This document shows positions 34,012-52,030 of a DNA stretch of 64,000 nt, one piece after another (positions within the stretch are counted from its first letter, which is position 1; each line of letters opens with the position of its first letter). The position numbers and the translations under genes were made by a program. Under the pieces are notes generated by a model that was given only the letters and a program-made list of their open reading frames with translations, did not search any database and had not been told where the DNA came from. The DNA comes from Allolobophora icterica (taxonomy: Eukaryota > Annelida > Clitellata > Crassiclitellata > Lumbricidae), in assembly GCA_963556255.1 (NCBI GenBank), contig OY744617.1:27507679-27571678 (forward strand). The letters run 5' to 3'.

Positions 34012-34017
34012 TCAGAT
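34012..34017. repeat. Polinton target site duplication, left
   Basis: TCAGAT here is repeated at 52261-52266. Six-base duplications are characteristic of Polinton integration. The right copy shares its first T with the outermost base of the terminal repeat. Confidence 0.85.
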
Positions 34018-34254
34018 AGTAGATTAGAAGTGGGGTTTTGAGCGCAGGAGCTACAAAAAGCTGCTTGATATAAAGACTGCCTATACAGAAAAAGGGTCCA
34101 CAGAGGCCTACAGGACCCACAGACCCTTATCAACGATCGGTTTCCAAGCAGTGTCTGTGGCTATCGTGGCTTAGAAGTCTTTTGAATCATGGTGTTAAGT
34201 GAGTCTTTGAAATCAGGCTCAATAGAAAGTCCTTTGATATAAAGACCGTCTCTA
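34018..34254 (+). repeat. Polinton left terminal inverted repeat
   Basis: From 34019 to 34199 (181 bp) it reads as identical to the reverse complement of the right terminus. Similarity then becomes gapped and ends at GACCGTCTCTA (34244-34254). Confidence 0.93.
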
Positions 34255-34465
34255 AGCCAATTCGGCCAAAGCCAAAAAATAAGGATCGTGGATTGCCCTA
34301 ACACATCAAACCGCAAGAGTGTCGTTTGCTGCCGGCCGAGACCCTCCCACGAGGCCGGCCCAAACCATTGGAGTGTGCCAGTAAAAATTATAGCCCACTA
34401 ATCGTACGGCGGTGGTGCGCTAGGAATAACGGACTCACTACTCCAACCGCCTACGACGAAAATTT
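34255..34465. other. Polinton left subterminal non-coding region
   Basis: No gene. At 34332-34361 the 7-bp arms GCCGGCC and GGCCGGC could form a hairpin downstream of the leftmost gene; whether it ends transcription is unknown. Confidence 0.4.
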
Positions 34466-35071
34466 TTATATCGTGGTTCGCGGAGAAGACCCAGCGCTGG
34501 TTAGTTTCTTGATTAGTTCTGCCACCATCTGGTCTTTGCTTTGACTCGGCAACTCTTTTTTTCCATTCTTGCTTTGTATATCACGCTTCATCGTTCTATA
34601 TTTCTCCTCCTCTCCCAAAATAAGCTTATATTCTTCATCGCTAATAGCCGTGTCCTCTAACGCCTTAGAAATGTGGTCATGAACAGTGTTTAGCTTACTC
34701 TCCGCCAAAATACAAATTTCGTCGTGTTTTGAAGCTTTAGCAACAAAACTTCTACTTACAACATTTCCAATAATATCCAGAAAACTCGTCGCTATGGCCA
34801 AACTCTCTAGAACAATACCAGGAATAAAACCAATACCAGTGGCTAGCATAGCTGCCCCACCCACCCCAGTTCCAAGACTAACTATAGCAAGGCCGGCCGA
34901 GGCCCCATTAGCCACATCTACAACCCTCTTATACTTTTTGCACAGTTGTCCTCGACTTATCGCCTCAGATCTCAGGAATGCTTCTACTTCACCGATCTTC
35001 TGCAGACGAAACGTCTGCGACTTCGTGTCTGACGAAATTGTCGGCTCCGTAAGCGTTGGATACAAAGCCAT
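34466..35071 (-). CDS. Polinton accessory protein with paired hydrophobic segments, 201 aa
   Basis: I do not recognise a named function. The protein has a charged N-terminus, a Gly/Ala-rich hydrophobic region near residues 53-105 that could make two membrane-spanning hairpin helices (ASAGLAIVSLGTGVGGAA then IGFIPGIVLESLAIATSFL), and a charged helical C-terminal half (HDEICILAESKLNTVHDHIS, ISDEEYKLILGEEEKY). Proteins with this layout are, as I recall, common beside Polinton genes in invertebrate genomes. It is the leftmost gene, 6 bp downstream of the 184-aa gene. A TATA-like CTATAAAAAACA directly precedes the ATG. A membrane-active or entry-related role is only a guess. Confidence 0.75.
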   Translation of the reverse strand: MALYPTLTEPTISSDTKSQTFRLQKIGEVEAFLRSEAISRGQLCKKYKRVVDVANGASAGLAIVSLGTGVGGAAMLATGIGFIPGIVLESLAIATSFLDIIGNVVSRSFVAKASKHDEICILAESKLNTVHDHISKALEDTAISDEEYKLILGEEEKYRTMKRDIQSKNGKKELPSQSKDQMVAELIKKLTSAGSSPRTTI

Positions 35072-35077
35072 TGTTTT

Positions 35078-35632
35078 TTATAGTTGCTCTATTAGTAAAG
35101 TTACGTTTAAGTCGATAGATGAAGTACTTTCAACGCCTCTCTTTTTGCCTTCAATTCGGAAACTCGTTTGTCCTGGAACGAATATTGCCCTAGATGCATC
35201 AAATTGTCCACTTTGAATGTCAACTGTGCGATCGATGCTACCCCCAGCAGCTGCCGGTGCTATAACGCGAACTGTTGCATCACCACCGCAAACACCAAAG
35301 ACTGTAAGCTTCCAGAAACCGCCCTCTAACGAAACCCCCTCATTGGTGGTTTGCAAACTTATACACGGAAAACGCGCAGCGGTCAATGGAAGAGTTTGCC
35401 ACGCACTCGTGGTTACCGTTCCGGCCGCCGTATAGATATCGCGGCAGTGGTAATCGTCAGACACGAAGTCGATGTGCTGTTGAGGCACCGCGGTCAATAG
35501 CTCTGCGGTGGGCTTCGGGATGTCGTACCCCCAGTGGCCTACATCACCTAGACTGTCTATGCTGTATTTGCACATGTCTATTTCTCCGTGTTGTCGGAGA
35601 TACCCCCGTATCTTGTAGTGTGAGTCGACCAT
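35078..35632 (-). CDS. Unrecognised Polinton virion-type protein, 184 aa
   Basis: No family is recognised. The sequence is rich in alternating hydrophobic and polar residues (FWKLTVFGVCGGDATVRVI, TSFRIEGKKRG, SIDLNVTLLIEQL), which suggests a beta-sandwich, with few charged helices. It starts with ATG 9 bp downstream of the fibre-like gene and is followed after 6 bp by the 201-aa gene, so the three probably form one late transcript. Position next to the fibre gene suggests a fibre-tip or surface component, but that is inference. Confidence 0.72.
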   Translation of the reverse strand: MVDSHYKIRGYLRQHGEIDMCKYSIDSLGDVGHWGYDIPKPTAELLTAVPQQHIDFVSDDYHCRDIYTAAGTVTTSAWQTLPLTAARFPCISLQTTNEGVSLEGGFWKLTVFGVCGGDATVRVIAPAAAGGSIDRTVDIQSGQFDASRAIFVPGQTSFRIEGKKRGVESTSSIDLNVTLLIEQL

Positions 35633-35641
35633 TATTAAGTC

Positions 35642-37813
35642 TTATGTTTCCCCGTGTCTAAAATATGTATAGATCTGGAAGTGAGATATTCCAAAAGTAG
35701 CTTGTGGTGGGCTGGTGACCAAGACAATCAGCCTGAATTTTTTGTATTCTTCGTCATCAGTGAAGGTGAACTCTTGTGCAGAATTAGTCAAAGTGACAGT
35801 GGAGGAAATGAGGGAATGGAATCCCGTTCCTGCTCCAGGAGTGGCGAGTGGAATCCCATAAATCTTCCAGGACGTGATACGTGGTGCGGTAGGACTAGAT
35901 CCCCCAGCCAGACTAACCTTCCATACTTTCACAGGCGTCGGGCATTCAATCTGTAACCAAGTCCCACTACCCTGAGCCATAACATCGGCTCTCGATGTGG
36001 ACGCCGTCTTCCACTCACCTCTCACACCCGAGTTGAATGCCATATGAGGCGGGTTAGTGGGTAAAGATTCGTTGGCTGAGGCAATAAAACCCGTTTCGGA
36101 AACGTTTCTGGATAGGGGCGGAATGTGGCCGCTGTAGTTGAGAATCTTGATATTCTGCGCGTATCGCCTTTCATTAGCTATCTCACTGTCTACATACCGC
36201 TTGTTGGTCAGGTACCATGGTCCCGAGGGCGACGTATCATTATTCGTAGTGGCGATGGTGATCAGCCGCGTCACTTGTTTAAAACTCACAGCGTCGCTAT
36301 CGGATCCTGAAATTTCTGTTGGGAGCCCAGTCACTCTTTTACCACCCATAGCCAGATCACCGGTCATGGTACTGCCGGATTTAAAGACGCATGCGTTCCT
36401 AACAATAACATCTTGCTCGTTGGCGTACCTCTTAGCAGCTTCAGCTTTCTGGTCCGCATAGAGTCTAACGGAAGCTCCAATCTCAGCGTTTTTTACGTCA
36501 ACGTATCGTTTATTTGCCACATGCAACGGTTCTGTTGGTACTCTATCACTCTTTGTCATGTTGTCGGCGATCAGCTTCGATACTTGTGCCATACTCGTCG
36601 CGTCGCTTTCGGACGTTGCTGCGTCTGTAGGGAGCCCAGTAACTCTATTACCGCCCATGGTTAAATCACCCGTCATTGCGTCGCCAGCTTTAAGCACGCA
36701 TGCGCTCCTAACGATAACATCTTGCTCGTTGGCGTACGTCTTAGCAGCTTCAGCTTTCTGGTCCGCATAGAGTCTAACTGAAGCTCCAATCTCAGCGTTT
36801 TTCGCGTCCACATACCGTTTGTTAGTCAAGTACTTTGGTCCAGCCGGCGCCGTATCATTATTCATAGTGGCGTTGCTGATCAGCTGCGTCACCTGTTTCA
36901 AACTCGCGGCGTCGCTATCGGATCCTGGAATTTCTGTTGGCAGCCCAGTCACTCTTTTACCACCCATGGTCAAATCACCAGTCATAGAATCGCCGCTTTT
37001 GAGCACATGCCCGCCTCTTACGATAGCATGCTTCTCGTCCACATATCTTCTAGCGGTGGTGACCTTCTCATCCACGTACTGTCTGTAAGAAGCGTCGCGG
37101 GAATCTACATACCGCTTATTCACCACATGCAACGACTCCGTGGGTACTCTATCGAGTTTTACTAGAGCGCCAGCGACCGCTGTTGACACTTGTTTCCAAC
37201 TCGCTGCGTCGCTATCGGATCCTGAAATTTCTGTTGGGAGCCCAGTAACTCGGTGGCCACCCATAACTAAACTTCCAGTCATTACGCCGCCTGATTTGAG
37301 CACGCACGCATTCCTGACGATAACATCTTGCTCGTTAACATAACTTTTAACAATAAGGTCCTTGTCATCTGCATACCGCCTAACAGAATCTCTCAGCCCC
37401 GCATTCTTCTCGTCCGTGTACTGCCTGGCATCGATAAGTTTTTGGTCTGCATGATTTTCGGCCGCGGTCGCCTTCTGGTCCGCGTATCTTACCACTTGTG
37501 CCCAGCTCGCTGCGTCGCTTTCAGACGCTTCTGCGTCTGTGGGCAGGCCAGTAACTTTGTGACCACCCATTTTTAGAACACCAGACATCGTTCCACCGGT
37601 GAGTTGCAGGTTGTCCTGATCTACGATGTCTGCATAAGCCTTTGTCGCGGCGTCCGTTTCCATCGTCGGCGTTCCCACATTTGTCAGCCGAAAACCTCCA
37701 GCCGAAAGAATTCCCAGCATGGTATCACCAGCCTTGTGGATGAGCCCAGCGGCGCTTATCTGCCCTCCTCCCACCCCACCTCCACCGTCTCTTCCAAATT
37801 TATCAACCGGCAT
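35642..37813 (-). CDS. Fibre-like repeat protein with discoidin-like C-terminus, 723 aa
   Basis: Probably a trimeric surface fibre for host attachment (inference). The body is built from about six repeats spaced roughly 60-130 residues apart, each with a core like MTGDLTMGGKRVTGLPTE followed by SDSDAAS and then helical YVD-type segments (NKRYVD, RLYADQKAEAA, YANEQDVIVR). This pattern is typical of phage tail-fibre shafts. The last 130 or so residues (WLQIECPTPVKVWKVSLAGG, ITSWKIYG, EEYKKFRLIV, ISHFQIYTYF) look like an F5/8-type C (discoidin, galactose-binding-like) beta-sandwich. The start is taken at the ATG at 37813, preceded by TATATAAAA; an open upstream stretch has only TTG. It lies between the protease and the 184-aa protein. 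Confidence 0.82.
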   Translation of the reverse strand: MPVDKFGRDGGGGVGGGQISAAGLIHKAGDTMLGILSAGGFRLTNVGTPTMETDAATKAYADIVDQDNLQLTGGTMSGVLKMGGHKVTGLPTDAEASESDAASWAQVVRYADQKATAAENHADQKLIDARQYTDEKNAGLRDSVRRYADDKDLIVKSYVNEQDVIVRNACVLKSGGVMTGSLVMGGHRVTGLPTEISGSDSDAASWKQVSTAVAGALVKLDRVPTESLHVVNKRYVDSRDASYRQYVDEKVTTARRYVDEKHAIVRGGHVLKSGDSMTGDLTMGGKRVTGLPTEIPGSDSDAASLKQVTQLISNATMNNDTAPAGPKYLTNKRYVDAKNAEIGASVRLYADQKAEAAKTYANEQDVIVRSACVLKAGDAMTGDLTMGGNRVTGLPTDAATSESDATSMAQVSKLIADNMTKSDRVPTEPLHVANKRYVDVKNAEIGASVRLYADQKAEAAKRYANEQDVIVRNACVFKSGSTMTGDLAMGGKRVTGLPTEISGSDSDAVSFKQVTRLITIATTNNDTSPSGPWYLTNKRYVDSEIANERRYAQNIKILNYSGHIPPLSRNVSETGFIASANESLPTNPPHMAFNSGVRGEWKTASTSRADVMAQGSGTWLQIECPTPVKVWKVSLAGGSSPTAPRITSWKIYGIPLATPGAGTGFHSLISSTVTLTNSAQEFTFTDDEEYKKFRLIVLVTSPPQATFGISHFQIYTYFRHGET

Positions 37814-37840
37814 TTTTATATACAAAAAGGTGATGGAAGT

Positions 37841-38263
37841 CTAACATAGGTCAAGCACGATGTCTTCAAAATTCTTTCCGGCAGCGAGCTCTCTTAGCAC
37901 GAGCAGACAGAGATGACCACATACCACATCATCGGGCCCCTGTAGCTGAAATGTTTGAGTTCTTATAGGATTTTTTAAATATCGAGAAATTTCGAGAGGC
38001 GGATCCAGCCCATAACTGTCAAAATAGACGGCTTTTGGTCCATCTATCCAATAGGCGACCCAGTGAGTACCATCACCAGAACCGGAATCCAGATTAACAA
38101 CTCCACACTCCTTCTCACGAGCCACGGCGGGCAGACCATCTCGCATGAAAACACCGCGGAAATGCGGCAGCGCTCTGGCAACTTTCTCTATGTCGAAGTT
38201 GCTAAGAGGTTTTAGTTTTTTTGCCCGATGTAGAGACCGGATCCTTTGCACATTGGACAACAA
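37841..38263 (-). CDS. Adenain-type cysteine maturation protease (frame lacking an AUG)
   Basis: Cleaves virion precursor proteins during capsid maturation. Counting from the TTG at 38263 the catalytic set is visible: His67 in GTHWVAYW, Asp82 in YFDSYG, Gln108 and Cys115 in QGPDDVVCGHLC (seven apart, as in adenovirus protease). The conserved domain begins about residue 18 (KPLSNFDIEKV). There is no ATG upstream of the domain; the first internal Met (FMRDG) would delete conserved residues. The frame overlaps the pX-like gene and is -1 to it, with a slippery heptamer at the exit, so translation is most likely by frameshift from that gene. The stop is 27 bp upstream of the fibre-gene ATG. Confidence 0.9.
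   Translation of the reverse strand: MLSNVQRIRSLHRAKKLKPLSNFDIEKVARALPHFRGVFMRDGLPAVAREKECGVVNLDSGSGDGTHWVAYWIDGPKAVYFDSYGLDPPLEISRYLKNPIRTQTFQLQGPDDVVCGHLCLLVLRELAAGKNFEDIVLDLC
38173..38221 (-). promoter_or_regulatory. Predicted -1 programmed ribosomal frameshift signal
   Basis: On the minus strand the heptamer A AAA AAC (38221-38215) lies in the pX-like frame immediately before its TAA stop. A 6-nt spacer (38214-38209) follows. Then comes a stem of CTCT (38208-38205) with AGAG (38176-38173) and GCAACTT (38202-38196) with AAGTTGC (38184-38178), enclosing an 11-nt loop. A -1 slip enters the protease frame exactly at LKPLSNFD and would give a 290-residue pX-protease fusion. Confidence 0.75.
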
Positions 38264-38712
38264 CCACCACGAGTCTCGCGCCCGAGATATAAACCGGACC
38301 CCCGCGCTTCGAGTGCGCGATTGTGACGCTCCGCCTCCGCCTGTGCGGCGTCGTTGGCCTGTTTGTTGTGCACGGCCTCTGCCACCCCAGTGGCAATGCC
38401 ACCCACGGCACCCGCCGCGCCTAACCCACCAAAAATCAGTGGGAGGAGAGCCAGCAGTGGAAGAAAGCCGCCCGATTTTGTCATCTTTTTCAATTGCGTT
38501 TTGGTGAATCTCAGCTCCATACCAACGCCTTCCGAAATCTTCTTCACTATTCGGGCGGCTTGAACTTTTGTGAGCGCGAGCTTATCGTCTCCACGAAGCT
38601 GGCCATGAGCGAGCCGGATCGTGGCGCCAGTGCCGGCACGCGCAGCTTTAGCCAATGTTTGCTTTTGCCCTTCGGTCAGCGAAAGGCCGAACGCAACGTG
38701 TTCAGTTTTCAT
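38212..38712 (-). CDS. pX-like minor virion protein, 166 aa
   Basis: Resembles the small Polinton/adintovirus virion protein often compared with adenovirus core protein X or pVI. The N-terminal 75 residues are basic and helical with LT..Q...I-type repeats (LSLTEGQKQTLAKAARAG, LALTKVQAARIVKKISEG). A hydrophobic Gly/Ala-rich stretch spans about residues 82-112 (FLPLLALLPLIFGGLGAAG) and could insert in membranes. Near the C-terminus are two GSGLY(L/I)G motifs (138-144, 157-163) around RGG-CCPMC. The GG sites may be protease targets. The reading frame ends on the slippery site that leads into the protease. Confidence 0.8.
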   Translation of the reverse strand: MKTEHVAFGLSLTEGQKQTLAKAARAGTGATIRLAHGQLRGDDKLALTKVQAARIVKKISEGVGMELRFTKTQLKKMTKSGGFLPLLALLPLIFGGLGAAGAVGGIATGVAEAVHNKQANDAAQAEAERHNRALEARGSGLYLGRETRGGCCPMCKGSGLYIGQKN

Positions 38713-38769
38713 TTTTGGAAAAAATATATCTAAAAGAGGGCCTTGTATCTAAATGTGAAAAACCGATTT

Positions 38770-40065
38770 CTAGTAGACGACGTTGAATTTGCTGCCATCC
38801 GATTCAAAATTCAGGAGTCGGTCGCTGATCAGGACGGCATATGCCGTCGTATTATTTGGTACCCCTTCGTTAAAGTCCACCTTGATTTGTATGTCCTGTA
38901 CAGAGGTTTTAAGTCGTTCAGATTGCCTGCGCACGTCCAGAACGAAGATCGGAAACAAATCTACAAATTCGATTGGTGTCGGTTGGCATGACGATTCACG
39001 CGCGTCTATGCCGCAATATTCTTCCTTGAAGTCACGTAGGGCCTTGTAAGCGCGAGAGGTTGTCCTCTTGGTGAAGTCGAGATTCATGTCAACCACCGGG
39101 TAGCGATCGCTGTTGAGCATAGCGAAAATGTTGCGAACCTGCACATGGTCAAACAGTGCCGGATTCTGGCCTTGATGTGCATTCTTTCCAGTCTGAAAAG
39201 CAACAAGAATCCAGCGTGGCTTTTCCGTGCCCGACTTAACGCTCAAACGCCAGGAAAAAGTCGTCGCTCGTGGCACCGCAATGTTGTCGCATTGCATGGC
39301 GCGGAATGCTACAGGTACCTTAACCTTGGCTTCAATCTGCTTCATAAGCATGCTTTTATACTCCAAAGCGGGTATTATATGCGGCATGAACCAGGAGAGT
39401 TTAGTCAGCGCGATCTGGCCGTTGGCCGCAGCGGCTTCCTTGAAGATCGCGTCTGCATCCCCCTGCCGGCTCAGCAGTAAAGAGTGTTTGATCCCGTATA
39501 CGACCTTGTGATAATCATCGCAAAAACCGAATAGATGTCTTAAGGGAACGATGAATGAAAATGTGCCGATGGGGACGGGTTTTCCAATGATCATCAGTCG
39601 ACGGGCCTCGAAGCCGATATTCGCGGCCGCCGCCGCCGCACTCGTGTCCTTCTGCCAACACATGTTTAAACCTTCGCCTTTGGAAAAATCATCGCCGTAT
39701 ACCAGCATGCCTTTCATCGTCGTGGCTTGCCCAGGTGACATGACATTCTCTATCTCGGTATTGTTAGCCAGGTATCGAATTTGAGAAAACATGTACGGGA
39801 TAGCATTGTTGACGAATGACACCAACGAGTCTGCGTTGTAACCCGCGCCAGTTGATGTAATCCTGCCCTCCACAAGAAGGTAACTCTTAGAAGGCTGCGT
39901 GAAAATGTCTTGGTTCTGGATGTCTATCTGTATGGCCTGGCCATTGTTAATAGCCGCAGGGTTTTGTGATTCATACTCGCGGTATTCAAACGATTCGATG
40001 CTATTATCATCGGGCACCGCCGAAGCGATGTCCAACATTTCACTCGGCACGTCAAATGCTGCCAT
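38770..40065 (-). CDS. Polinton major capsid protein (double jelly-roll), 431 aa
   Basis: The hexon-equivalent that forms the icosahedral shell as trimers. It begins with the Polinton-typical MAAFDVPSEMLDIASAVP followed by SFEYREYESQNP and IDIQNQDIFTQPSKSYLLVEG. The C-terminal roll includes TSVQDIQIKVDFNEGVP and AYAVLISDRLLNF. The length is in the range of Polinton capsid proteins. The ATG at 40065 is preceded by TACTTATAATA. It sits between the pVI-like and pX-like genes, the usual morphogenesis cluster. Confidence 0.92.
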   Translation of the reverse strand: MAAFDVPSEMLDIASAVPDDNSIESFEYREYESQNPAAINNGQAIQIDIQNQDIFTQPSKSYLLVEGRITSTGAGYNADSLVSFVNNAIPYMFSQIRYLANNTEIENVMSPGQATTMKGMLVYGDDFSKGEGLNMCWQKDTSAAAAAANIGFEARRLMIIGKPVPIGTFSFIVPLRHLFGFCDDYHKVVYGIKHSLLLSRQGDADAIFKEAAAANGQIALTKLSWFMPHIIPALEYKSMLMKQIEAKVKVPVAFRAMQCDNIAVPRATTFSWRLSVKSGTEKPRWILVAFQTGKNAHQGQNPALFDHVQVRNIFAMLNSDRYPVVDMNLDFTKRTTSRAYKALRDFKEEYCGIDARESSCQPTPIEFVDLFPIFVLDVRRQSERLKTSVQDIQIKVDFNEGVPNNTTAYAVLISDRLLNFESDGSKFNVVY

Positions 40066-40168
40066 TATTATAAGTAAAAAAGTTCAAGCTTCAATTATTA
40101 ATCATGCTGTAAATGAAATTCATGTGTGGTGGGTTAAACATTTGTTGCGTTTTGTGAATATTTTTATT

Positions 40169-40627
40169 TCATTTTGCAAGAAACAGACCCCTACCACAAC
40201 GACTCGGCTTTATAGTTTTGAAACCGGATCCAGCAATACGGCTGTTTATGTCAGCCATTGCCGGAACAACGGGTGGCGGACTCACAGCCAGTTGTTTTAA
40301 GTATTCGATGCTCTTGTCGCTGAGCGCCTTCTCCAAAGGTGCGGGGACAACGGGCGCGGCAGCTGAATTTTCATTTCGTAAATGAGCTTCATTTACGGCC
40401 GCAGCGCGTCTCGCTTTCACGGCATCAACAATTTGCCTGACGGCAGATGCTGTTGTGGCGCCGGCTTTCGCGACATTACCAACCGCCTTGGCAACGTTTG
40501 TGATTGTGCCTCTATTCGCCGAAATGAAGGAGCCTGCACGGCCAAGGAAACCCGCGATTTTGGGTATCCAGTCGAAAAGTCCACCACCCACGACACGACG
40601 CCGCTTTTTAATTCCAAGAACAAACAT
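40169..40627 (-). CDS. pVI-like virion protein, 152 aa
   Basis: From the ATG at 40627 the protein has a short basic leader (KKRRRVVGGG) then GLFDWIPKIAGFLGRAGSF, an amphipathic helix. That layout, a GG-type protease site followed by a membrane-active helix, matches adenovirus pVI and its Polinton counterparts. Next come Ala-rich helices (VAKAVGNVAKAGATTASAVR), a Pro/Ala linker and a basic C-terminus (PSRCGRGLFLAK) that may be a second cleavage or interaction site. A longer reading from 40657 would start at GTG and overlap the penton gene, so I reject it. Function by analogy only. Confidence 0.75.
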   Translation of the reverse strand: MFVLGIKKRRRVVGGGLFDWIPKIAGFLGRAGSFISANRGTITNVAKAVGNVAKAGATTASAVRQIVDAVKARRAAAVNEAHLRNENSAAAPVVPAPLEKALSDKSIEYLKQLAVSPPPVVPAMADINSRIAGSGFKTIKPSRCGRGLFLAK

Positions 40628-40649
40628 GAGAATATTTAAGTGTGAACAT

Positions 40650-41450
40650 TTACGCACTGCGGATGTGAAACCTTATAGTTACTGTCTCACCGCGGAGGTT
40701 TAATTGTTCACCATTCTGGTCGGTCAGCCACACACGAATGCCCTGTACGTTACCAGCCGGTGCAACTGGTAGGTACACCAGATTTTTCGGAGACTCGATT
40801 ACCTTGTAGCCGGGCGACACATCCGGGAAAAAACTGTAGATTACTGGCAGCTGGCTACCATTTCGATACGATCCAGAGATGATGTCACAATTTACCAGGA
40901 TTGTGTCCACGCGGAGAATATCGACTGGATTTTCTCCCTCTTTATAACCACTACCAAGCCTCTGAGGGTTAAAACCGAGCATTTGCCTGATGGTAGATTG
41001 AGCCATATTTACCTTATATAGGGCATTCGTAATTTTTATGAAGGCGCGTAGGGTAGATGCGTTAGCTCCTATGGTAATAGGAGAATTAAAGCCGAGTGGT
41101 GCCACACCCGTCGGAGAATTTTGCTTTTCTAACTGCCTGCCGATTTCATCATTAATCTGTGCGATCTCATAGCTTCCGTCGGGCAAAATGATCGTCTTCC
41201 ACGTCACACCATTGTCGGTGCTGTAGACGAACTTGTTATTTGAACTGTCAATGTTCGGAATCGAATTATAAGTTTCAAGATTGACCAAAGCAAGCTCAAA
41301 GCGTCTTTTTGGATCCAGGTACAGCGGTGGTGAGAAAGCCGTGGTCCACCCTGTAGTATCTGAGGAAACAACTATACTAAAATTTTCCTTAGGCTGTAAA
41401 AGTTCTCGAATTTCTTCGAGTAGTTTCTCCGAGCGTTCCATCTGAGCCAT
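40650..41450 (-). CDS. Polinton minor capsid (penton-like single jelly-roll) protein, 266 aa
   Basis: Forms the pentameric vertices of the capsid. Family features visible: a short helical N-terminus, then RFELALVNLETYNSIPNI, NNKFVYSTDNG, LPDGSYEIAQINDEI, and a strand-rich C-terminal half ending RGETVTIRFHIRSA. These are the conserved landmarks of Polinton penton proteins. The length is typical. It lies directly upstream of the pVI-like and major capsid genes. Confidence 0.9.
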   Translation of the reverse strand: MAQMERSEKLLEEIRELLQPKENFSIVVSSDTTGWTTAFSPPLYLDPKRRFELALVNLETYNSIPNIDSSNNKFVYSTDNGVTWKTIILPDGSYEIAQINDEIGRQLEKQNSPTGVAPLGFNSPITIGANASTLRAFIKITNALYKVNMAQSTIRQMLGFNPQRLGSGYKEGENPVDILRVDTILVNCDIISGSYRNGSQLPVIYSFFPDVSPGYKVIESPKNLVYLPVAPAGNVQGIRVWLTDQNGEQLNLRGETVTIRFHIRSA

Positions 41451-41468
41451 GAATTTTGTTTTCTATTT

Positions 41469-42581
41469 CTATTTTATGAGCATGTTTCTATTCAATTCGA
41501 GTGCCAGCTCTTTGGAGATCGCACCGGAACGCAGTAACTCATCAAGAATGGCGGAGATTTCGTTGCCGAGACCTGTGTTTCCCGCGGCCCTAGAGGCCAC
41601 CAAAAGCTGCAACCTCTCTACCAGGGCGTTTGGGTCATTATAAAATTGCACCGCGCCGCCACGAATCAGTTGGAACTTTTTACTTTTCCGGCCATGAATA
41701 GGCAGACCAGACATCTGTACGAGCTTTTTGAAAGTTTCAATTGCCTGAGGCGAATATTGCTTAGTCTTAACGAAGCGTTTCGTTAACAGGCTGAACAACG
41801 ACTCATCGGCCGGAGATTCGAGAACGAGGTTCCCACCTTTAAACACTCTTAGTCTACCAGCAGACAGCGCGACGGGGTCGACGGAGAGCTCACCCAAGGC
41901 GCTACCTTGTAATTTAAGAGGAACGGCTGGGACACTGAAACCCTTTCCCTTTTTGATGAGGCTGTGGCCCGCTAGCAGTGTATGGATTCGCTTTTTATAT
42001 TCCCTTAGGGCTTCAATATCTGCAGTCACCTCATCTACCTTTTCTTCGTCTTTTTCCTTTTTGGCATTCTTTTTCTCTTTGCCCAGGGTGTGGCGATTAT
42101 AGTGATTTACCTCACCGATTATCTTTTCAGCACCTACAATGTCGGCTAGATCGAGCTCGCTCGGAGGTTTGAAACCGTGTCGTGTGATTGCCGCGACGTT
42201 GAGATATTTGTTTGGATCTACTAACAATGCGCGGGGGATTCGGGATGTTGGAAGCGCTGGAAGCGCTGGAGCAGCCGTTGGAGCAACTGCTCCCACGGAA
42301 TCACCGAACAAAGCTGCTATCGGGTTAAAATTAGCAGACTCTGAAATCTGCGCCGGCAAATCCTGTAAAGCGCTGGTGACTTTCTGCAGCTCCTTAGACG
42401 TAGCCACCTGGGATTCGGCGGTGGCTGTGGCTATTGGTTTGAAAAGCTTTGCCGCATCGTACTGAAGATTGGCTTCACCGAGCTTCTCATCCACGAAACG
42501 CTGTCTCAATCGATCTCTCCGAGCTAAATAATCCTGAGTTAACGCGTCTCGCTCCTGTTTAGAAGAAACCTTTGTCCACAT
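41469..42581 (-). CDS. Conserved Polinton PY-like protein, 370 aa
   Basis: I recognise it as one of the conserved Polinton proteins without enzymatic motifs found next to the capsid genes, but cannot assign a function. The N-terminal 90 residues are helical and charged (RDRLRQRFVDEKL). A Pro/Ala-rich linker follows near 120-140, a lysine/glutamate-rich coiled segment near 190-215 (KEKKNAKKEKDEEKVDEV), and a more globular C-terminal half with FSLLTKRFVKTKQYSPQAIE and GRKSKKFQLIRGGAVQFYND. A structural or scaffold role is likely from context. Confidence 0.78.
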   Translation of the reverse strand: MWTKVSSKQERDALTQDYLARRDRLRQRFVDEKLGEANLQYDAAKLFKPIATATAESQVATSKELQKVTSALQDLPAQISESANFNPIAALFGDSVGAVAPTAAPALPALPTSRIPRALLVDPNKYLNVAAITRHGFKPPSELDLADIVGAEKIIGEVNHYNRHTLGKEKKNAKKEKDEEKVDEVTADIEALREYKKRIHTLLAGHSLIKKGKGFSVPAVPLKLQGSALGELSVDPVALSAGRLRVFKGGNLVLESPADESLFSLLTKRFVKTKQYSPQAIETFKKLVQMSGLPIHGRKSKKFQLIRGGAVQFYNDPNALVERLQLLVASRAAGNTGLGNEISAILDELLRSGAISKELALELNRNMLIK

Positions 42582-42764
42582 CGTGGTTGTATGTCGACTA
42601 TATCTTGTAAGTTCTTAAGTGTGACAAGTTTCACAATGTGACTGATAATATCGTCACAACTGTCACGCTAAGGTATTTTTTTATACACATTCAATCAATC
42701 AGTAACGATAACTTTTGTCCACATCGCGTTTGTATGTCGGCTATATGTTGCCTATATCATGTCT
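42582..42764. other. Polinton spacer with duplicated gene leader
   Basis: The leader and first codons of the 370-aa gene (42569-42620) are repeated at 42711-42764 with a few changes. The extra copy reads ATGTGGACAAAAGTT on the minus strand and stops after nine codons. Confidence 0.7.
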
Positions 42765-43451
42765 TTAAATACTTGCCTTCGGCTTATAGAAGCGATCGAA
42801 CCCGCAGCGATATTTTCCATCGTACACTTTGGACGTCAAATCTATGACTGCGAATCCATATGGTTGGGCAGCGCACTCGCTGAAGAACGTACGGAATTCA
42901 TCGAAAGACATGTCGCCGCCCACGAACGTATCGTGAATGGCTCGCAAATTTTTGCTGTCTTGGTTGAAGAGGACGATAAGATTAGCATTGTCACGGATCG
43001 CTTGCTTCGGAATTCGAAAATAATTCTGCGTTAAGTAGAAGCAGTCCGCGCCACCGTGTCGGCCCATAGTGAAATACCTTTCGATGGGCGACTGTTTTTC
43101 AAGCATAACGTCGTCGAACACTAGAAGGCTTCTGGCATTCTTATTTAATGATTCAACTGGAACTATTTCATCTGAGCAAGAGTGAAAGGAAGCCACTTCC
43201 TTCCCGGCAACTTTTTCCAACTCTGTAACCCAGTCCCGGAGGAACTGATATTTTTCCTGTCCCAGAGACTTTGAGTATAGATAGAGCCGGTCAAAACGTA
43301 GGTACCCCTTCTTCAGAAGGAGGTTGAGTAGTAGGTTTGTTTTTCCACATCCGCTAGGCCCACAGATTATGCATCGTATGCTTGATGGCAACAACCAATG
43401 GTGGTGTTTTTTCCCATCGTCGGCTTCGAGGTCAAAATTTGTTATTTCCAT
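42765..43451 (-). CDS. FtsK/HerA-type genome packaging ATPase, 228 aa
   Basis: Drives DNA into the procapsid. From the ATG at 43451: Walker A GPSGCGKT at residues 31-38, Walker B LLVFDD at 109-114, and GRHGGADCFYLTQNYF just after it, containing the polar Gln/Asn of this ATPase class. Length and motif spacing fit Polinton, adintovirus and virophage A32-like ATPases. A longer frame begins at 43598, but its extra 49 residues run through the start of the divergent PLA2 gene and are unlike the family, so the 43451 start is preferred. The gene is divergent from the PLA2-domain gene with only about 38 bp between start codons. Confidence 0.93.
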   Translation of the reverse strand: MEITNFDLEADDGKKHHHWLLPSSIRCIICGPSGCGKTNLLLNLLLKKGYLRFDRLYLYSKSLGQEKYQFLRDWVTELEKVAGKEVASFHSCSDEIVPVESLNKNARSLLVFDDVMLEKQSPIERYFTMGRHGGADCFYLTQNYFRIPKQAIRDNANLIVLFNQDSKNLRAIHDTFVGGDMSFDEFRTFFSECAAQPYGFAVIDLTSKVYDGKYRCGFDRFYKPKASI

Positions 43452-43489
43452 ATAGAGACAACGAGTTATGATTGTATTCAACGAACACA

Positions 43490-44068
43490 ATGTATTGCCT
43501 ACGATGTAAGAAACATACTGAGACTTCAAATGAAACAATCGTCGAGTTACGAAACGGTCGGCCAGCCAAGAAGGGAACCTGTGCCGTCTGCGGTGCAAAG
43601 AAGAGCCAAATTTTGCCTTCTAAAGTGCGAAAGCGCAAGACTCATGAGTCTAGCGGAGGCTCGCTACTGAATAGGGCCCTCAACGCTCTACCTCTACCAG
43701 AAATGCATATGAGCCTTCCATCCGGTATGTCTTCAGAAGATAATCCGGGAGGTTCTTTTCAGAACACGGGAAAGTACTCTTACTGTGGACCATTCACAAA
43801 ACTCGATAAACGGCTGTCACAGCGCTATCACGGTGTTAATCAGCTCGACCGTGCGTGCCTCCACCATGATGTGGCTTACGCAGTTCATAAAGATACTCCG
43901 GGGCGTAACCACGCAGATGACATCCTCGCTGCAGCCGCGTCGAAGATCGCACTCACCGATGAAACTCCGGATTATGAGAAGAAGGATGCGCGGCTGGTAT
44001 CGGCCATTATGTCAGCGAAGTCGAGGCTGGGGATGGGTGTCAGAACGAGCCAGCGAAAACGCAAATGA
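43490..44068 (+). CDS. Zinc-ribbon plus parvovirus-type phospholipase A2 protein, 192 aa
   Basis: Probably helps the particle escape endosomes by hydrolysing phospholipids, as VP1 phospholipases do (analogy). The N-terminus has a Cys4 zinc ribbon (C3, C6, C31, C34). A linker with KVRKRK follows. The PLA2 part has the calcium loop YCGPFTKLD (98-106) and the catalytic dyad His126-Asp127 in LDRACLHHDVAY. A second acidic position is HADD (141-144). The C-terminus is basic (SQRKRK). The start is the ATG at 43490; the frame is open from 43472 but only with TTG. The stop overlaps ATG 44065 (ATGA). Confidence 0.85.
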   Translation: MYCLRCKKHTETSNETIVELRNGRPAKKGTCAVCGAKKSQILPSKVRKRKTHESSGGSLLNRALNALPLPEMHMSLPSGMSSEDNPGGSFQNTGKYSYCGPFTKLDKRLSQRYHGVNQLDRACLHHDVAYAVHKDTPGRNHADDILAAAASKIALTDETPDYEKKDARLVSAIMSAKSRLGMGVRTSQRKRK

Positions 44069-44118
44069 AATTCATTTGTGTATGTGTTTACCTGTTTGTA
44101 ATATATAGTTTTACTGAA

Positions 44119-45132
44119 ATGTCTAAGCACCTTTCAGCCGTCTATTACAGCCCTAGAGGTTACTGGCGAGGTAAGGCTGCGGTGAAGAAACTAGCCTCAG
44201 CCGCCAAAGTTTCCGAGGCGGAGGCTCGCGATTGGCTGAAGAAACAAGCTGTGTGGCAGATTTATCTACCCGTTCCACATCGCATACCGCATCCAAAGTT
44301 CGAGGAAAATCGACCAAACGCCGTACACCAAGCCGATCTCTTGTTTTTACCTCACGATAAAGTAGGTCGAAAGACTTATAAATACGCTCTCACTGTTGTT
44401 GATGTTGCCTCACGATACAAAGAAGCTGAACCGTTGATAAACAAAAGTGCGACCGAAGTCGCCGCCGCTTTAAGCCGGATCTATAAGAGGGGTCCATTGA
44501 CTTGGCCTCGACTTCTTCAGGTCGACCCTGGCCGCGAATTTATGGGTGATTTTACACCGTTGCTGGCGAAGCACGACGTTCTTGTAAGACGCGGACAGGC
44601 CGCAAATCATCGCCAACAGGGCATCGTTGAACGCTTTAACCGTACTCTAGCTGAGCGACTCTTCGGTGCTCAATACGCTCAGGAATTGCTCCTGGATGCA
44701 AGGGGGTCATCCGAACGGTCAGTGGAATGGGTTCGACGATTGCCCGAAGTTGTAGTTGCACTAAACGATGAGCCGACGCGCTTGCTCGACATGAAGCCGG
44801 TTGAAGCGATGAAAGCTGCTAAAGTGACACAGAAGCCCTCTCATTCACAAATGAAAACTCGTTTGTGGGGCTTGGATGAGCCTGTTCTCGGGCACGACGT
44901 TCTCGTCCGATATTTGTACGCTCCCGGCGAGCTCGAAGGTGGAAGCAAACGTGCCACCGATCCTAACTGGTCGCTCACCATCCACGCTATTTTGGATGTT
45001 GTTCGGCAGGCTGAGCAACCGGCTTTATACCATCTAGTTGATGGGCCTGGCCGCGGTTTTGTCCGTGAGGAGCTGCTTCTGGTGCCTATGGGCACTGAGC
45101 TACCCCCCGATAGAATACTCAACCGTCGTTGA
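44119..45132 (+). CDS. Polinton retroviral-type integrase (DDE), 337 aa
   Basis: Inserts the element's linear DNA, producing the 6-bp duplication. From the ATG at 44119 the catalytic triad is Asp73 (HQADLLFLP), Asp136 (LLQVDPGREFMG) and Glu171 (QQGIVERFNRT), with the classic 35-residue D-to-E spacing. The N-terminal 50 residues form a helical DNA-binding part; the C-terminal region (GHDVLVRYLYAPG, FVREELLLVPMG) looks like an SH3/chromo-like DNA-binding fold. An upstream ATG at 44065 would add a hydrophobic 18-residue extension unlike the family. TATATAG lies just before the chosen start. The last 14 bp overlap the polymerase gene tail to tail. Confidence 0.95.
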   Translation: MSKHLSAVYYSPRGYWRGKAAVKKLASAAKVSEAEARDWLKKQAVWQIYLPVPHRIPHPKFEENRPNAVHQADLLFLPHDKVGRKTYKYALTVVDVASRYKEAEPLINKSATEVAAALSRIYKRGPLTWPRLLQVDPGREFMGDFTPLLAKHDVLVRRGQAANHRQQGIVERFNRTLAERLFGAQYAQELLLDARGSSERSVEWVRRLPEVVVALNDEPTRLLDMKPVEAMKAAKVTQKPSHSQMKTRLWGLDEPVLGHDVLVRYLYAPGELEGGSKRATDPNWSLTIHAILDVVRQAEQPALYHLVDGPGRGFVREELLLVPMGTELPPDRILNRR

Positions 45133-48100
45133 TTTTGTAGTGCCCGTATGCCAGCGTTGTTATCCCATCGGCCTCTATCCACTTTTTTGTGTCTAATGGA
45201 GAGAGGCTGATCTTATTCTGCTCGTACACTCCGATCTGGTGGTCGTGGCTTCGAATCACGACTTGTGTGTGCCGCATCTCTTCTCGTTCGAACAGGCACT
45301 CCTTGTATAGCTCGTGATGCAGATCCTTCTTCACAACTGCTCTCTGAACGCCTTTAGCTTTCCTGATCTCTGAACCGCCCGATTTTAAGATCGAGTACAT
45401 CTTCGGACGCAGTCCCACGAATTCGGCGATGGCCAATCCGTTACATTCATCCTTGAACTTGCCCACGACTTTCTTGTTCTCGACGTCGTAGTATGGGCTG
45501 TCTCTAGAAAACTCGGAGAGGTCGAATAGGTGTTTTTTGTTCCACATATCGGCATAGGCGTTCGGAGTTTCCACCTGAAATAAGAGGCTGTCAGTGTCTG
45601 TGTATAAGAGTTGAGCATTGTTGCCGTACTCGTTTTTCACATCGTTGTACCAGAAGTCGTACATCAGATGCTTGCTGAGGTCGAGGACAGCCTGGCCGAC
45701 ATATACAGGTCTGTTTAACTTGAGCTTGCTCTTCAAACTGTGAATCGCGGCGAGTTGGTCGTTGAAGATTTTGTGTGATATGTAGGCCGGGTCGGCAGTT
45801 AGTTTACGAAGCTTGTCAACTTTTGAGGTCGGTACCAGGTTAACTCTGATTCTTTTTCTAAGATTTTCCATGGTCTTTCCAAAGACCGCATTATTAGCCA
45901 GTTTGAAGAAATCCTTCTCAAACTCCGACGTTGCCTTCGCTCTCAATTTCGTATTCATCTCGATGTATGGAGCCATCCATGCCTCCTGTCTAAACTTAAT
46001 GACACGATGAATTTTAGAAACTCGTAGCCCTAACGAGTGGTAGAGTTTGAGATTTCTATAATGGACCACATACCGCTCCTTAGGTCGTAGGCTTGGTACT
46101 AACTTCACATGCTTTGTGAACTTGCCTCCCAACTCGTTCATAAGCACATTCTGATAGTCACTCAACCACTCCTCTTGGACTGTCAGGGTCTCCGGTGCTA
46201 AGGGATAGTCGCTATGTGATTCGTGGAGGTGCCCCGGGTACCCGAGATCGACTTCAAGTAGGAAGCCTTCAGGCGCGTCATCTGGAGTTTCCAACACTTC
46301 ATCGAGAGTTGGACTTTCCCAGCTAAATCCTCCAACTGGCAGTGGCTGTTGCATCGCCCAGCCGTAAAGATTATTCGCGTCGAGATACATGATCCAGTTG
46401 TCTGGCTTCGTGGTATCGTGATCTGGGCATTGCGGGTTGTTGGCTTTTGCGAAGCGCTTGGATACCATCGAAATTCCGCCTCGGAGACCTTTCTCTACGA
46501 ACAAGTGCATGTCTATATCGGTTAAAAGTTCGAGTTCGATCTTCGTCTTTTTCAACAAAGCGTCCCAGGCCATTCCTGGTAGGCTGAAGTAGTTAGCCGG
46601 GTCCAGACTATAGTGCTTCATCGATGTGTCTCTGAAGGTCTCGAAGACATCGGCTAATAGAAGTACATCCGTGCGGAGATACAAGTCGTGATAGTCGCCC
46701 AGAGTTTTACAATCGAATTCATTCCATACTCGTTGGGCGTGTTCATAATCCGCATCAGAGATGTTCTCTCGGGACAGCCTGCTGTAGAACGCTTCTTTGG
46801 GTGGAAGTCGGTCTTCTTCGAAGCGGTGGTAATCGTCAATGTGCTCGTAACAATATACGCCCTTTCGCCTCAAAAGATCTAGTTTTGTCGCATCATTGTG
46901 AACGAAATTTTCCTTTATATACGCCGTTGTGACTTTCAGATCCTCAAGCGACAGATTTCCTGATAATTTATCCAACGAGCTGTTTAGAAACTGGAGACTA
47001 TCAATGAACTGTAGTTGTCCAATGTTAAATGTCATGTATTTCTCCATATTGTTTGGAATACAGTTAATTTCAGTTTCCTCATCCTGTGCGGCCTCACAGC
47101 TGCCTATCGCTTGCATTATGAGGTGGCTGTCGTAACCTCGTAGATTGTGGAAGACCACTGGTACCTTGCACTTATCTGGATATATTCGAAGCTTGAGGTT
47201 GCAGGCGTTATGAGCAGCACCTCGGTACTTACCAGTAATGTGACAGTGGTCGCGAACTCTATCCTCTTCGAGCGCTTCTCCGCAGATATGACATTCGTTA
47301 GCCTCGCGGAATGATTGGCGATCGGCCGCTGACATAACCATCTTAGCTGGGGTGGCCAGCCTTTGCTTGATAGTGGCTAGCTCGCCTTGTAGTCGTTGCA
47401 GGAACTCTGGCACGGCGTTCTCTCCACGATATAGAACTGGTTTCTTGGTGCGGCCATCGCATCGAACTACTATATAACAAAAACTACATGGTTTCTGCTC
47501 AGCTATCTGTCTAGTGTTGCTCTCGTTGGGGTTCATGGCTGCACCTTCGACTGGCACGTTCAACGCCTCGAAGTCTGCGTAAACGATATACGGAGTGCGC
47601 ATCTGTTTGTGATGGTTCTGGAATTTGAGGATATTTTCATCCTCTTTTGGCATCTCAATTCTCTGAGGCTTCTCACTAATACCCTGACAATCTTTGACAT
47701 GAGCATCCAGCAAGTCTTGTCTACAGAATATGTGTAGGCAGCGGCGACATGGGTGCTTTCGCTCTTTATGATCGCTGTTTTTGTACAGCATTCGGGCCAA
47801 GTCCTTGATCCAGACATAGTGATAATTCTGTAAAGGAAAAGTCTGCAAATGAGCCTGCAAATGAATTTCATTTGCGTTTGCGTTTACGTCGCTGGCCAAC
47901 AGTAGAAGATCAATATTGTGAACTCTAGTCTCTGTTGAGACATGGATTGGATACAGCCCTTCATTCCATCCGAAGACCGAAACGGACACCATAGGGTTCT
48001 GACGTTCGAACTTGCCGATATCTGTGACCTTCACTGGAAATTCTATACCGTCGAAGTTTAGCTCCTGGAGGTGTGTACGATACTTAGTTGGGCGTTGAGG

Positions 48101-48913
48101 GTCCTTTTCTACTGGATACATGGCACTTAAAATGGCCCACTCAAAGCATCGGTTATCGTCATTCTTTACATTAATAACCGTGCGAGGGGGTATGTACTTG
48201 GGTGTTGGAAAGTAGCTCTTACCTCGGAAAGGCTTATATCTTGCAAAACTGAGGTCTAGCGACACGACCCGCTTCACTCTCCACCCCGATCCCTCATTGG
48301 TATACTCCTCGAGGAGTTGTAGTACTTCGGCCTTGGCCTTCCGTATAGCCCCTTGGACTTTACCTGCATTGGTAATTGGTGCTGCTGTGCTTCGAAAGTA
48401 GGCGGTATTGGTAATGATGCCGGGGGGCGCGTTGCCACCATACACATTATCAACGGTCGGTGCCAACTTTTCCAAATCAACAGTCAACACTTGCGAGTAT
48501 TTTAAACCGCCATTTTTCAAGAGCTCTTCGTTTAGCTGCGACTCAATGTTGTGCTCCATTGCACTCAAGAAAGCCAACGCATCTCCCTCCAACCTGTGGT
48601 TAAGAGGTACTTCTGCACGGAAGTCTCTCAGATGCTGGTTGGCTAGCTCTCTGTGCACTAGAAAGGGTGGTGGTCCACCTCTATCTTTCTTATTTAGGAG
48701 TGGGTCAAATTCTGCCAGAAGGGCTTTACGTCTTGCCCCTCTGTGCTTACGTACTGGTGGAATTGGCCTTGGAAGCAGTGGTTTTAGTAATCGCCTTTTG
48801 ATTGTATCTGGAATAGGTTCGTCCAAGATGTTTTGTAAAACAGCTCGAAGAGCTGGGGGACCAGTAAACTCACCTAGCAATTGTTCAATTTTTTCATTCG
48901 TAGACAATGCCAT
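45119..48913 (-). CDS. Protein-primed family B DNA polymerase (Polinton pPolB), 1264 aa
   Basis: Replicates the element. A Polinton-specific N-terminal region (1-380) includes NDDNRCFEWAILSAMYP. A CRRC...H...C zinc finger is near 389-409. Exonuclease motifs are YADFEA (445-450), FHNLRGYDSHLI (588-599) and YLRTDVLLLADVF (745-757). An inserted ECHICGEALEEDRVRDHCH module (540-558), ending in NACN, is an endonuclease-VII/HNH-like zinc site usual in these polymerases. Polymerase motif A is YLDANNLYG (843-851), motif B KLANNAVFGK (1004-1013) and motif C YTDTDS (1104-1109). All catalytic residues are present. A short extra segment near 343-362 carries a 17-bp palindrome also found at 44062. The ATG at 48913 is preceded by TAATATAAAATA. 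Confidence 0.96.
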   Translation of the reverse strand: MALSTNEKIEQLLGEFTGPPALRAVLQNILDEPIPDTIKRRLLKPLLPRPIPPVRKHRGARRKALLAEFDPLLNKKDRGGPPPFLVHRELANQHLRDFRAEVPLNHRLEGDALAFLSAMEHNIESQLNEELLKNGGLKYSQVLTVDLEKLAPTVDNVYGGNAPPGIITNTAYFRSTAAPITNAGKVQGAIRKAKAEVLQLLEEYTNEGSGWRVKRVVSLDLSFARYKPFRGKSYFPTPKYIPPRTVINVKNDDNRCFEWAILSAMYPVEKDPQRPTKYRTHLQELNFDGIEFPVKVTDIGKFERQNPMVSVSVFGWNEGLYPIHVSTETRVHNIDLLLLASDVNANANEIHLQAHLQTFPLQNYHYVWIKDLARMLYKNSDHKERKHPCRRCLHIFCRQDLLDAHVKDCQGISEKPQRIEMPKEDENILKFQNHHKQMRTPYIVYADFEALNVPVEGAAMNPNESNTRQIAEQKPCSFCYIVVRCDGRTKKPVLYRGENAVPEFLQRLQGELATIKQRLATPAKMVMSAADRQSFREANECHICGEALEEDRVRDHCHITGKYRGAAHNACNLKLRIYPDKCKVPVVFHNLRGYDSHLIMQAIGSCEAAQDEETEINCIPNNMEKYMTFNIGQLQFIDSLQFLNSSLDKLSGNLSLEDLKVTTAYIKENFVHNDATKLDLLRRKGVYCYEHIDDYHRFEEDRLPPKEAFYSRLSRENISDADYEHAQRVWNEFDCKTLGDYHDLYLRTDVLLLADVFETFRDTSMKHYSLDPANYFSLPGMAWDALLKKTKIELELLTDIDMHLFVEKGLRGGISMVSKRFAKANNPQCPDHDTTKPDNWIMYLDANNLYGWAMQQPLPVGGFSWESPTLDEVLETPDDAPEGFLLEVDLGYPGHLHESHSDYPLAPETLTVQEEWLSDYQNVLMNELGGKFTKHVKLVPSLRPKERYVVHYRNLKLYHSLGLRVSKIHRVIKFRQEAWMAPYIEMNTKLRAKATSEFEKDFFKLANNAVFGKTMENLRKRIRVNLVPTSKVDKLRKLTADPAYISHKIFNDQLAAIHSLKSKLKLNRPVYVGQAVLDLSKHLMYDFWYNDVKNEYGNNAQLLYTDTDSLLFQVETPNAYADMWNKKHLFDLSEFSRDSPYYDVENKKVVGKFKDECNGLAIAEFVGLRPKMYSILKSGGSEIRKAKGVQRAVVKKDLHHELYKECLFEREEMRHTQVVIRSHDHQIGVYEQNKISLSPLDTKKWIEADGITTLAYGHYKINDG

Positions 48914-49076
48914 AGTTAGAAATTATTTTATATTACTATGGCAAACTTTTCTTTAATATAATAATTATGTTGTTTGTTCAAATGATAATTTTTGTTTACT
49001 GATGTTCGATTGACGCTTGCTCGTCTGTATTAACTCAATACAATAACTATGTCGTTTGTTCAAATGATAATTTTTT

Positions 49077-52004: not shown

Positions 52005-52030
52005 AAACGCAGATTAGAAGATGGGTGGTA

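What the first reader, a model, noticed from the sequence alone, without database searches (positions are those of the whole stretch)
38173..38263. Programmed -1 frameshift joining the pX-like virion protein to the adenain-type protease
The protease frame has no AUG before its conserved domain and overlaps the pX-like frame in the -1 register. At the end of the pX-like frame is the canonical slippery heptamer A AAA AAC in the correct phase, directly followed by the TAA stop. A 6-nt spacer and a predicted stem (4 bp + 7 bp, 11-nt loop) follow. The slip enters the protease exactly where homology begins. This would set a low ratio of a 290-residue fusion and deliver the protease into the particle attached to a virion protein, as retroviruses do with Gag-Pro. 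I do not know of a described frameshift in Polintons.
Basis: partly seen in the sequence, partly recalled or inferred. Interest (0 to 1): 0.88.

Follow-up and report, generated by a model that had tools for sequence, protein, structure and literature searches.

The report
Polinton protease made by ribosomal frameshift
In this virus-like jumping element the gene for a predicted adenovirus-type protease has no ATG start codon before its conserved domain and overlaps the end of a predicted core-protein gene at a slippery A AAA AAC site whose protein trace recurs in many related elements, so the protease is likely made when ribosomes slip back one base, as in retroviruses.

Summary
On the minus strand the pX-like frame ends CAA AAA AAC TAA (heptamer 38215-38221). 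The protease is in the -1 frame, open back to 38581; its first ATG (38146) lies inside the conserved domain. Identical 182-nt terminal repeats, a 5-bp target duplication and open frames for the other recognised genes make decay unlikely. AlphaFold plus Foldseek place the protease with adenain. Main evidence: 18 of 36 clade pX proteins end in Lys-Asn-stop (3 KK-stop, 1 KNR-stop) against 0 of 84 outgroup pX. For five protease relatives, pX and protease tails together force A AAA AAY plus stop (three pairs with matching contig lengths). 12 of 17 PLA2-type pX proteins also end in KN-stop, though none of the four proteins with a named (insect) host does. A -1 ribosomal frameshift explains this best. 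Against: the hairpin is unremarkable and not conserved; at least 11 other database proteins join pX and protease in frame; one relative pair fits +1. Prior print: a 2024 preprint suggests hypothetical slippery sites in adintovirus Penton ORFs and a similar Hexon-Adenain relationship. Untested: expression, nucleotide sequence of clade relatives, other copies in the host genome (tool did not complete).

The parts
34018..52261 (.). The whole Polinton/Maverick element (about 18.2 kb)
   Evidence: Terminal inverted repeats of 182 nt, 100% complementary, ends AGT...ACT
34018..34199 (+). Left terminal inverted repeat
52080..52261 (-). Right terminal inverted repeat
34013..34017 (.). Target-site duplication CAGAT, left copy
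   Evidence: Flanks printed; same 5 bases at 52262-52266
52262..52266 (.). Target-site duplication CAGAT, right copy
38212..38712 (-). pX-like (adenovirus mu-like) protein, zero frame, 166 aa plus stop
   Evidence: Adeno_PX E 0.0097, below Pfam's cut-off; 15 of 25 aligned clade members, this one included, match Adeno_PX at E up to 0.1, best 0.00021
38215..38221 (-). Slippery heptamer A AAA AAC
   Evidence: KN-stop tail kept in relatives
38212..38214 (-). Zero-frame stop codon TAA directly after the heptamer
37841..38215 (-). Protease frame entered after the slip (124 aa plus stop), adenain-type cysteine protease; H50, D65, C98 invariant, in residue numbers of window:37844-38212
38173..38208 (-). 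Predicted hairpin 6 nt downstream of the heptamer; role doubtful
38770..40065 (-). Major capsid protein (double jelly roll), upstream neighbour
   Evidence: PF21738 E 7.9e-55
35642..37810 (-). Fibre-like repeat protein, downstream neighbour
   Evidence: ORF; repeat of period 309 nt; the name is inference

Best explanation
The end of the pX-like gene is a site where ribosomes likely slip back one base on A AAA AAC, read past the adjoining TAA and add the 124-residue protease to a fraction of pX molecules, giving a predicted 290-residue pX-protease fusion. Shown in the window: heptamer in phase, adjoining stop, protease in the -1 frame, no ATG before the protease domain, element with identical terminal repeats and open genes. 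Shown in relatives by their proteins: the pX frame often ends Lys-Asn-stop and, where pX and protease tails can be matched, both peptides fit only a DNA with A AAA AAY and a stop. Inferred: that the slip is ribosomal, that it happens at a useful rate, that the fusion enters the particle because pX (like adenovirus mu) binds the packaged genome, and that the protease later frees itself. The stimulator is not identified; the hairpin of the window is only a candidate.
For: Sequence of the junction. No ATG in the protease frame from 38581 down to 38146. pX tails: 18 of 36 clade members end KN-stop, 1 KNR-stop, 3 KK-stop; 0 of 84 outgroup pX end KN or KK. A further search added 6 KN-stop tails among 10 clade-like pX that I picked (one of the six, P0265, lacks the motif before it) and 12 among 23 script-selected pX of mostly PLA2 type, or 12 of the 17 that one search lists with Pfam PF08398. 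The stretch before KN varies in length and letters (LSKN, LGKKN, RPQKN, STALGGQKN, PCSKN), and in 36 of 36 database KN-stop tails the preceding residue (S, K, P, Q or E) has a codon ending in A. Overlap test: 10 of 4320 pairs of a listed protease and a clade pX are jointly encodable (threshold 9 codons; found 12-16) in the -1 relation, 0 of 4320 in the +1 relation, 0 of 10080 with outgroup pX in either relation; 0 of 36000 shuffled clade tails against the five matched proteases. The 10 pairs involve 5 proteases; for 3 of them (P0002/P0131, P0010/P0124, P0012/P0146) source and longest-contig length agree. The joint solution is A AAA AAY TRR. Protease tree: a 100/97 branch separates 28 rows labelled own start from 23 others that hold all 16 overlap-type rows. 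DNA of one outgroup-type Polinton (L001) shows a protease with its own ATG. Protease fold: pLDDT 91.8, best PDB match adenovirus proteinase, E 5e-7. [quoted passage not shown]
Against: No expression data. No nucleotide sequence of a clade relative was available; theirs is deduced from protein pairs, two of the five without a sign of a shared contig. In-frame joining exists: P0003 and P0016 in or near the clade, P0136 running on in frame (by eye), and P0242, P0243, P0245, P0246, P0247, P0249, P0250, P0254, P0257 further off. 7 of 36 clade pX have the C-terminal motif but other ends and 7 more lack the motif. Three clade tails end KK, that is A AAA AAG at best. No -1 partner was matched for the PLA2-type tails, and the four proteins with a named insect host (P0245, P0250, P0257, P0304) do not end in KN-stop. 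The hairpin is not exceptional and not conserved. Whether relatives lack an ATG in the protease frame is not known: a gene caller's first M may stand for ATG, GTG or TTG.
Confidence: 0.84

Rival explanations
1. Transcriptional slippage: RNA polymerase adds or drops A residues in the A-run, so that part of the mRNAs encode an in-frame pX-protease fusion.
For: The window has a run of 7 A; in-frame fusions and a likely one-base variant at this run exist among database entries (P0003, P0125, by eye).
Against: The overlaps of P0004 and P0010 with their pX partners are solved as TCA AAA AAY, only 6 A, short for slippage by cellular RNA polymerase II (recalled). What recurs is the phase of the heptamer plus the stop, which slippage of RNA does not need. 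Runs of 6-7 A occur at 10 other places in the element's minus-strand gene regions.
Confidence: 0.06
2. Splicing: an intron joins pX to the protease frame.
For: The frames overlap over a long stretch, so many junctions would be possible; adenovirus late genes are spliced (recalled).
Against: It does not explain why the pX end recurs as KN-stop in many relatives. Intact vertebrate Mavericks are described as encoding intronless ORFs (PMC8097293, passage).
Confidence: 0.03
3. The protease has its own mRNA or is reinitiated, starting at a non-AUG codon in the overlap.
For: GTG at 38251 and TTG at 38263 and 38260 lie in the protease frame upstream of the domain; the listed first residues of several relatives fall at about this place.
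Against: No CTG or ACG in the protease frame between 38581 and 38200; non-AUG starts would not conserve a slippery heptamer and stop.
Confidence: 0.04
4. The frames are apart because of a mutation or assembly error.
For: Homopolymer runs are prone to errors; in-frame relatives exist.
Against: Same arrangement deduced for five other proteases with pX partners; terminal repeats 182/182 identical; the element's other recognised genes are open.
Confidence: 0.02

Closest known systems
Gag-Pro frameshift of beta- and deltaretroviruses (MMTV, HTLV-1, HTLV-2)
   Same: Same heptamer A AAA AAC, protease in the -1 frame of a structural protein (PMC12789967 and PMC8310308, passages).
   Different: Here the element is a double-stranded DNA Polinton, the structural partner is a small pX-like protein and the protease is a cysteine protease of adenain type. 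No pseudoknot was shown.
Hypothetical slippery sites in adintovirus Penton ORFs and the Hexon-Adenain relation (PMC11071296)
   Same: Proposed -1 frameshifts in Polinton-related viruses, and a similar relationship with adenain as partner (section 16 read).
   Different: Other genes (Penton, Hexon); offered as hypothetical from KnotInFrame, without conservation evidence in the section that I read. pX is not named in that section.
Adenovirus pX/mu precursor and adenain
   Same: Related protease fold and weak Adeno_PX similarity.
   Different: In adenovirus the protease is a separate gene product (recalled); here it is predicted to be fused to the core protein.
In-frame pX-protease and PLA2-pX-protease fusions of other Polintons (P0003, P0016, P0242, P0243, P0245, P0250)
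   Same: Same domains joined in the same order.
   Different: One continuous frame, so every product would be a fusion.

Membership tests
-1 programmed ribosomal frameshift site | Slippery heptamer X XXY YYZ in phase | tested here: met
   A AAA AAC at 38215-38221
-1 programmed ribosomal frameshift site | Long -1 frame overlapping the heptamer and without its own AUG | tested here: met
   124 aa after the slip, first ATG at 38146 inside the domain; shown for the window only
-1 programmed ribosomal frameshift site | Heptamer kept in relatives with a divergent surrounding | tested here: met
   KN-stop in 18 of 36 against 0 of 84; joint decoding A AAA AAY stop for five proteases; nucleotide sequence of relatives not seen
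-1 programmed ribosomal frameshift site | Stimulatory structure about 5-9 nt downstream | tested here: inconclusive
   Hairpin after a 6-nt spacer, z -0.94 to -1.83 by cut, 137 of 1041 GC-matched windows as stable; K-V-A of the 3' arm in 0 of 15 relatives
-1 programmed ribosomal frameshift site | Measured frameshift product | not testable with these tools
   Needs reporter assay or peptides
Adenain (adenovirus-type cysteine protease) | Fold | tested here: met
   Foldseek best matches 1nln, 4wx4, 4piq, TMq 0.69-0.72
Adenain (adenovirus-type cysteine protease) | Catalytic His and Cys with acidic partner | tested here: met
   H50, D65, C98 invariant in 25 aligned sequences; that these are the catalytic positions is inferred from order and recall
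Adenovirus pX/mu | Pfam Adeno_PX above cut-off | tested here: not met
   16.2 bits against cut-off 25; 15 of 25 aligned clade members match at E up to 0.1. Hence called pX-like only
Polinton/Maverick | PolB, rve integrase, packaging ATPase, double-jelly-roll capsid protein, protease, terminal inverted repeats | tested here: met
Gag-Pro type retroviral element | Reverse-transcribing element with gag and pol | tested here: not met
   In the ten proteins scanned the families found are those of a Polinton; works like Gag-Pro, is not one

The most novel reading that the evidence does not exclude
A large branch of animal Polintons, covering both the stand-alone pX type of this window and a PLA2-pX type whose named relatives are insects, uses the retroviral A AAA AAC solution to tether a limited dose of maturation protease to its genome-binding core protein. 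The adjoining stop and a stimulator other than a conserved hairpin would set the ratio. In-frame fusions and AUG-started proteases would mark gains and losses of this control.
Probability: 0.5. Interest if true: 0.85.

Novelty: new variant of a known kind. Interest (0 to 1): 0.7.

Why it matters
Maverick particles have not been observed according to the abstract of PMC8097293 (listing), and how their protease is dosed and packaged is not known to me. [quoted passage not shown] It would also be a clean convergence with retroviral Gag-Pro, down to the heptamer.

Tried and rejected
Hairpin as the key signal: tested by shuffles and by other windows of the element, weak, not conserved; Rfam gave no match up to E 1 in 37500-39000. 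Nucleotide sequences of relatives: five scans of viral contigs with protease, capsid and pX queries gave none; one scan of genome contigs gave one Polinton contig filed under a bacterial MAG, of the own-ATG type. Copies in the host genome: the genome search was tried 18 times and never answered. Adenain cleavage sites in pX (consensus recalled): 33 of 36 clade pX relatives match the pattern somewhere, but the window's pX only at IFGGL inside its hydrophobic stretch, so I draw nothing from it. Pairing 66 further pX-like proteins, PLA2 types included, with 139 protease-bearing proteins gave no -1 pair, so a frameshift in the PLA2 type rests on the KN-stop tail alone. Literature: 10 paper searches. 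I saw no paper that describes this junction, but most subscription papers are not held, and the first adintovirus paper was not held under two ids.

Full report
What is there. The pX-like ORF (38712-38212, 166 aa) ends GGG CAA AAA AAC TAA. The protease frame is -1 to it, open from 38581 to the stop at 37841, and has no ATG before 38146, which is inside the conserved domain. The heptamer A AAA AAC (38215-38221) is in phase X XXY YYZ and the stop follows at once. A slip adds 124 residues, so the fusion would have 290. Of the in-phase X XXY YYZ sites found in 12 ORFs of the element, the others lead to -1 extensions of 0 to 52 residues.

The element. Terminal inverted repeats of 182 nt, 100% complementary, at 34018-34199 and 52080-52261, ends AGT/ACT and a CAGAT duplication outside. 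Pfam finds a double-jelly-roll capsid protein, a Pox_A32-like ATPase, PLA2, rve integrase and PolB among ten proteins scanned. These genes are open. A dead gene is therefore an unlikely reason for the frame break.

The protease. Pfam gives nothing for it, and sequence search of the PDB gives weak adenain matches (E 0.0025). The AlphaFold model (pLDDT 91.8) matches adenovirus proteinase best (1nln, E 5e-7, TMq 0.69; 4wx4, TMq 0.72). H50, D65 and C98 are invariant in 25 aligned sequences.

Relatives: protease tails. The search found 458 proteins, 120 listed. Of these, 119 could be anchored (P0084 could not). In 9 of 119 the stretch before the domain can be read, in the frame that makes the protease -1, as the pX C-terminal motif (P0013, see below, is one of the 9); in 1 of 119 (P0035) in the +1 relation. 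I labelled 15 database proteases plus the window as overlap type, by hand, using the lysine pair before the domain. P0003 and P0016 are in-frame fusions, P0009 is unclear, and the remaining rows were labelled own start or other fusion by elimination. On the protease tree (51 rows, a selection of the 120 plus the window) a branch with support 100/97 parts 28 rows of that last label from 23 rows that hold all 16 overlap-type rows, the two fusions, P0009 and four others. The overlap label needs 6 changes on the tree, so a single origin is not shown; the inner branches of that side are mostly unresolved.

Relatives: pX tails. In the pX search (179 found, 120 listed) I took P0122-P0156 and P0159 as the clade (36) and the other 84 as outgroup, by score and tail. 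Clade ends: 18 KN-stop, 1 KNR-stop, 3 KK-stop, 7 other with the C-terminal motif, 7 without it. Outgroup: none of 84 ends in KN or KK. The residues before KN change in kind and number while KN-stop stays, which speaks for selection on the nucleotides rather than on the tail peptide.

Decoding the overlap. If a database protease and a database pX overlap in the -1 relation, a DNA must exist that encodes both. 10 of 4320 clade pairs pass over 12-16 codons (threshold 9); 0 of 4320 in the +1 relation; 0 of 10080 outgroup pairs in each relation; 0 of 36000 shuffled clade tails against the five matched proteases. The solutions read A AAA AAY TRR at the end. The ten pairs hold five proteases: P0002, P0004, P0008, P0010, P0012. 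By eye P0275's end is out of frame with the conserved C-terminal motif, which points to an indel in that copy; it is a result against a universal rule.

A second group. Searching with P0003 (110 found) brought PLA2-pX proteins and relatives named Lucilia cuprina (P0245), Trichogramma kaykai (P0250), Exocentrus adspersus (P0257) and Cephus cinctus (P0304). In a script-selected set of 23, 12 end in KN-stop; all 12 are among the 17 that one search lists with the PLA2 family PF08398 and without protease. P0316 and P0323 of the 23 are of other types. None of the four proteins with a named host ends in KN-stop: three are in-frame fusions with the protease and P0304 ends otherwise. In-frame joining of pX and protease is seen in P0003, P0016, P0242, P0243, P0245, P0246, P0247, P0249, P0250, P0254 and P0257. 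No protease partner was matched for the PLA2-type KN-stop proteins. In all 36 database KN-stop tails the preceding residue is S, K, P, Q or E, each with a codon ending in A, as the heptamer needs.

Outgroup at DNA level. L001, a contig filed under a Balneolales MAG, is a Polinton fragment with a protease starting at its own ATG (MAQQIDVDGLILPNKPLTN...).

Hairpin. The predicted hairpin 38208-38173 has the right spacing, but 8, 10, 17 and 31 of 200 shuffles fold as well in four cuts, and 137 of 1041 GC-matched windows are as stable. Its 3' arm uses the codons of K-V-A; 0 of 15 other overlap-type proteases have K-V-A there, and the two nearest (P0002, P0008) have K-A-A. A stimulator may differ between elements, or be the stop-codon context, or be absent.

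Mechanism. I conclude -1 ribosomal frameshifting at about 0.84. Transcriptional slippage is the main rival; 6-A runs deduced for P0004 and P0010 and the fixed phase argue against it. What follows for the particle (dose, delivery by pX, self-release) is inference from adenovirus and retroviruses.

Known and new. [quoted passage not shown] relatively few eukaryotic DNA viruses are known to use frameshifting (PMC8310308, passage). One preprint suggests, by KnotInFrame, hypothetical slippery sites in adintovirus Penton ORFs and a similar relationship for Hexon-Adenain (PMC11071296, section 16). Searches for Polinton, Maverick or adintovirus with frameshift or slippery terms listed no paper that I recognised as describing a pX-protease frameshift. 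In one search (48 papers, 40 listed) only that preprint, of those listed, held 'slippery'. I opened eight papers: passages of PMC10120064, PMC8097293, PMC12567637, PMC8310308, PMC11089739, PMC3835772 and PMC12789967, and passages plus one section of PMC11071296.

Noticed in passing
P0300-P0325: PLA2-pX proteins end in KN-stop in 12 of the 17 with PF08398 in that range, suggesting the same slippery end in a second Polinton group; their proteases were not found, and none of the four proteins with a named (insect) host shows this end.
   Followed up: partly
P0018, P0020, P0056, P0084, P0262: Related proteases are fused in other elements to PLA2-like or integrase-like sequence; the protease seems to change partners.
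   Followed up: no
L001 (JAKSCW010000563.1): A contig filed as a Balneolales bacterium MAG carries Polinton genes (PolB end, protease, fibre-like protein), so it looks like a mis-binned eukaryotic or viral contig.
   Followed up: partly
window 35642-37810, repeats 36183-36999: A 723-residue protein made of repeats like MTGDLTMGGKRVTGLPTE, resembling phage tail-fibre repeats (recalled); L001 has a similar protein beginning MPVNKFG next to the protease.
   Followed up: no
window 34466-35077 and L001 2236-2964: Accessory proteins that look alike by eye around a RYKK stretch in both elements; no Pfam match for the window's.
   Followed up: no
window 14552-17512: About 3 kb of GT-rich tandem repeats with strong GC skew.
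   Followed up: no
window 53508-54799: Array of about 155-nt units in both orientations containing AAGATGGCGGCCAA.
   Followed up: no
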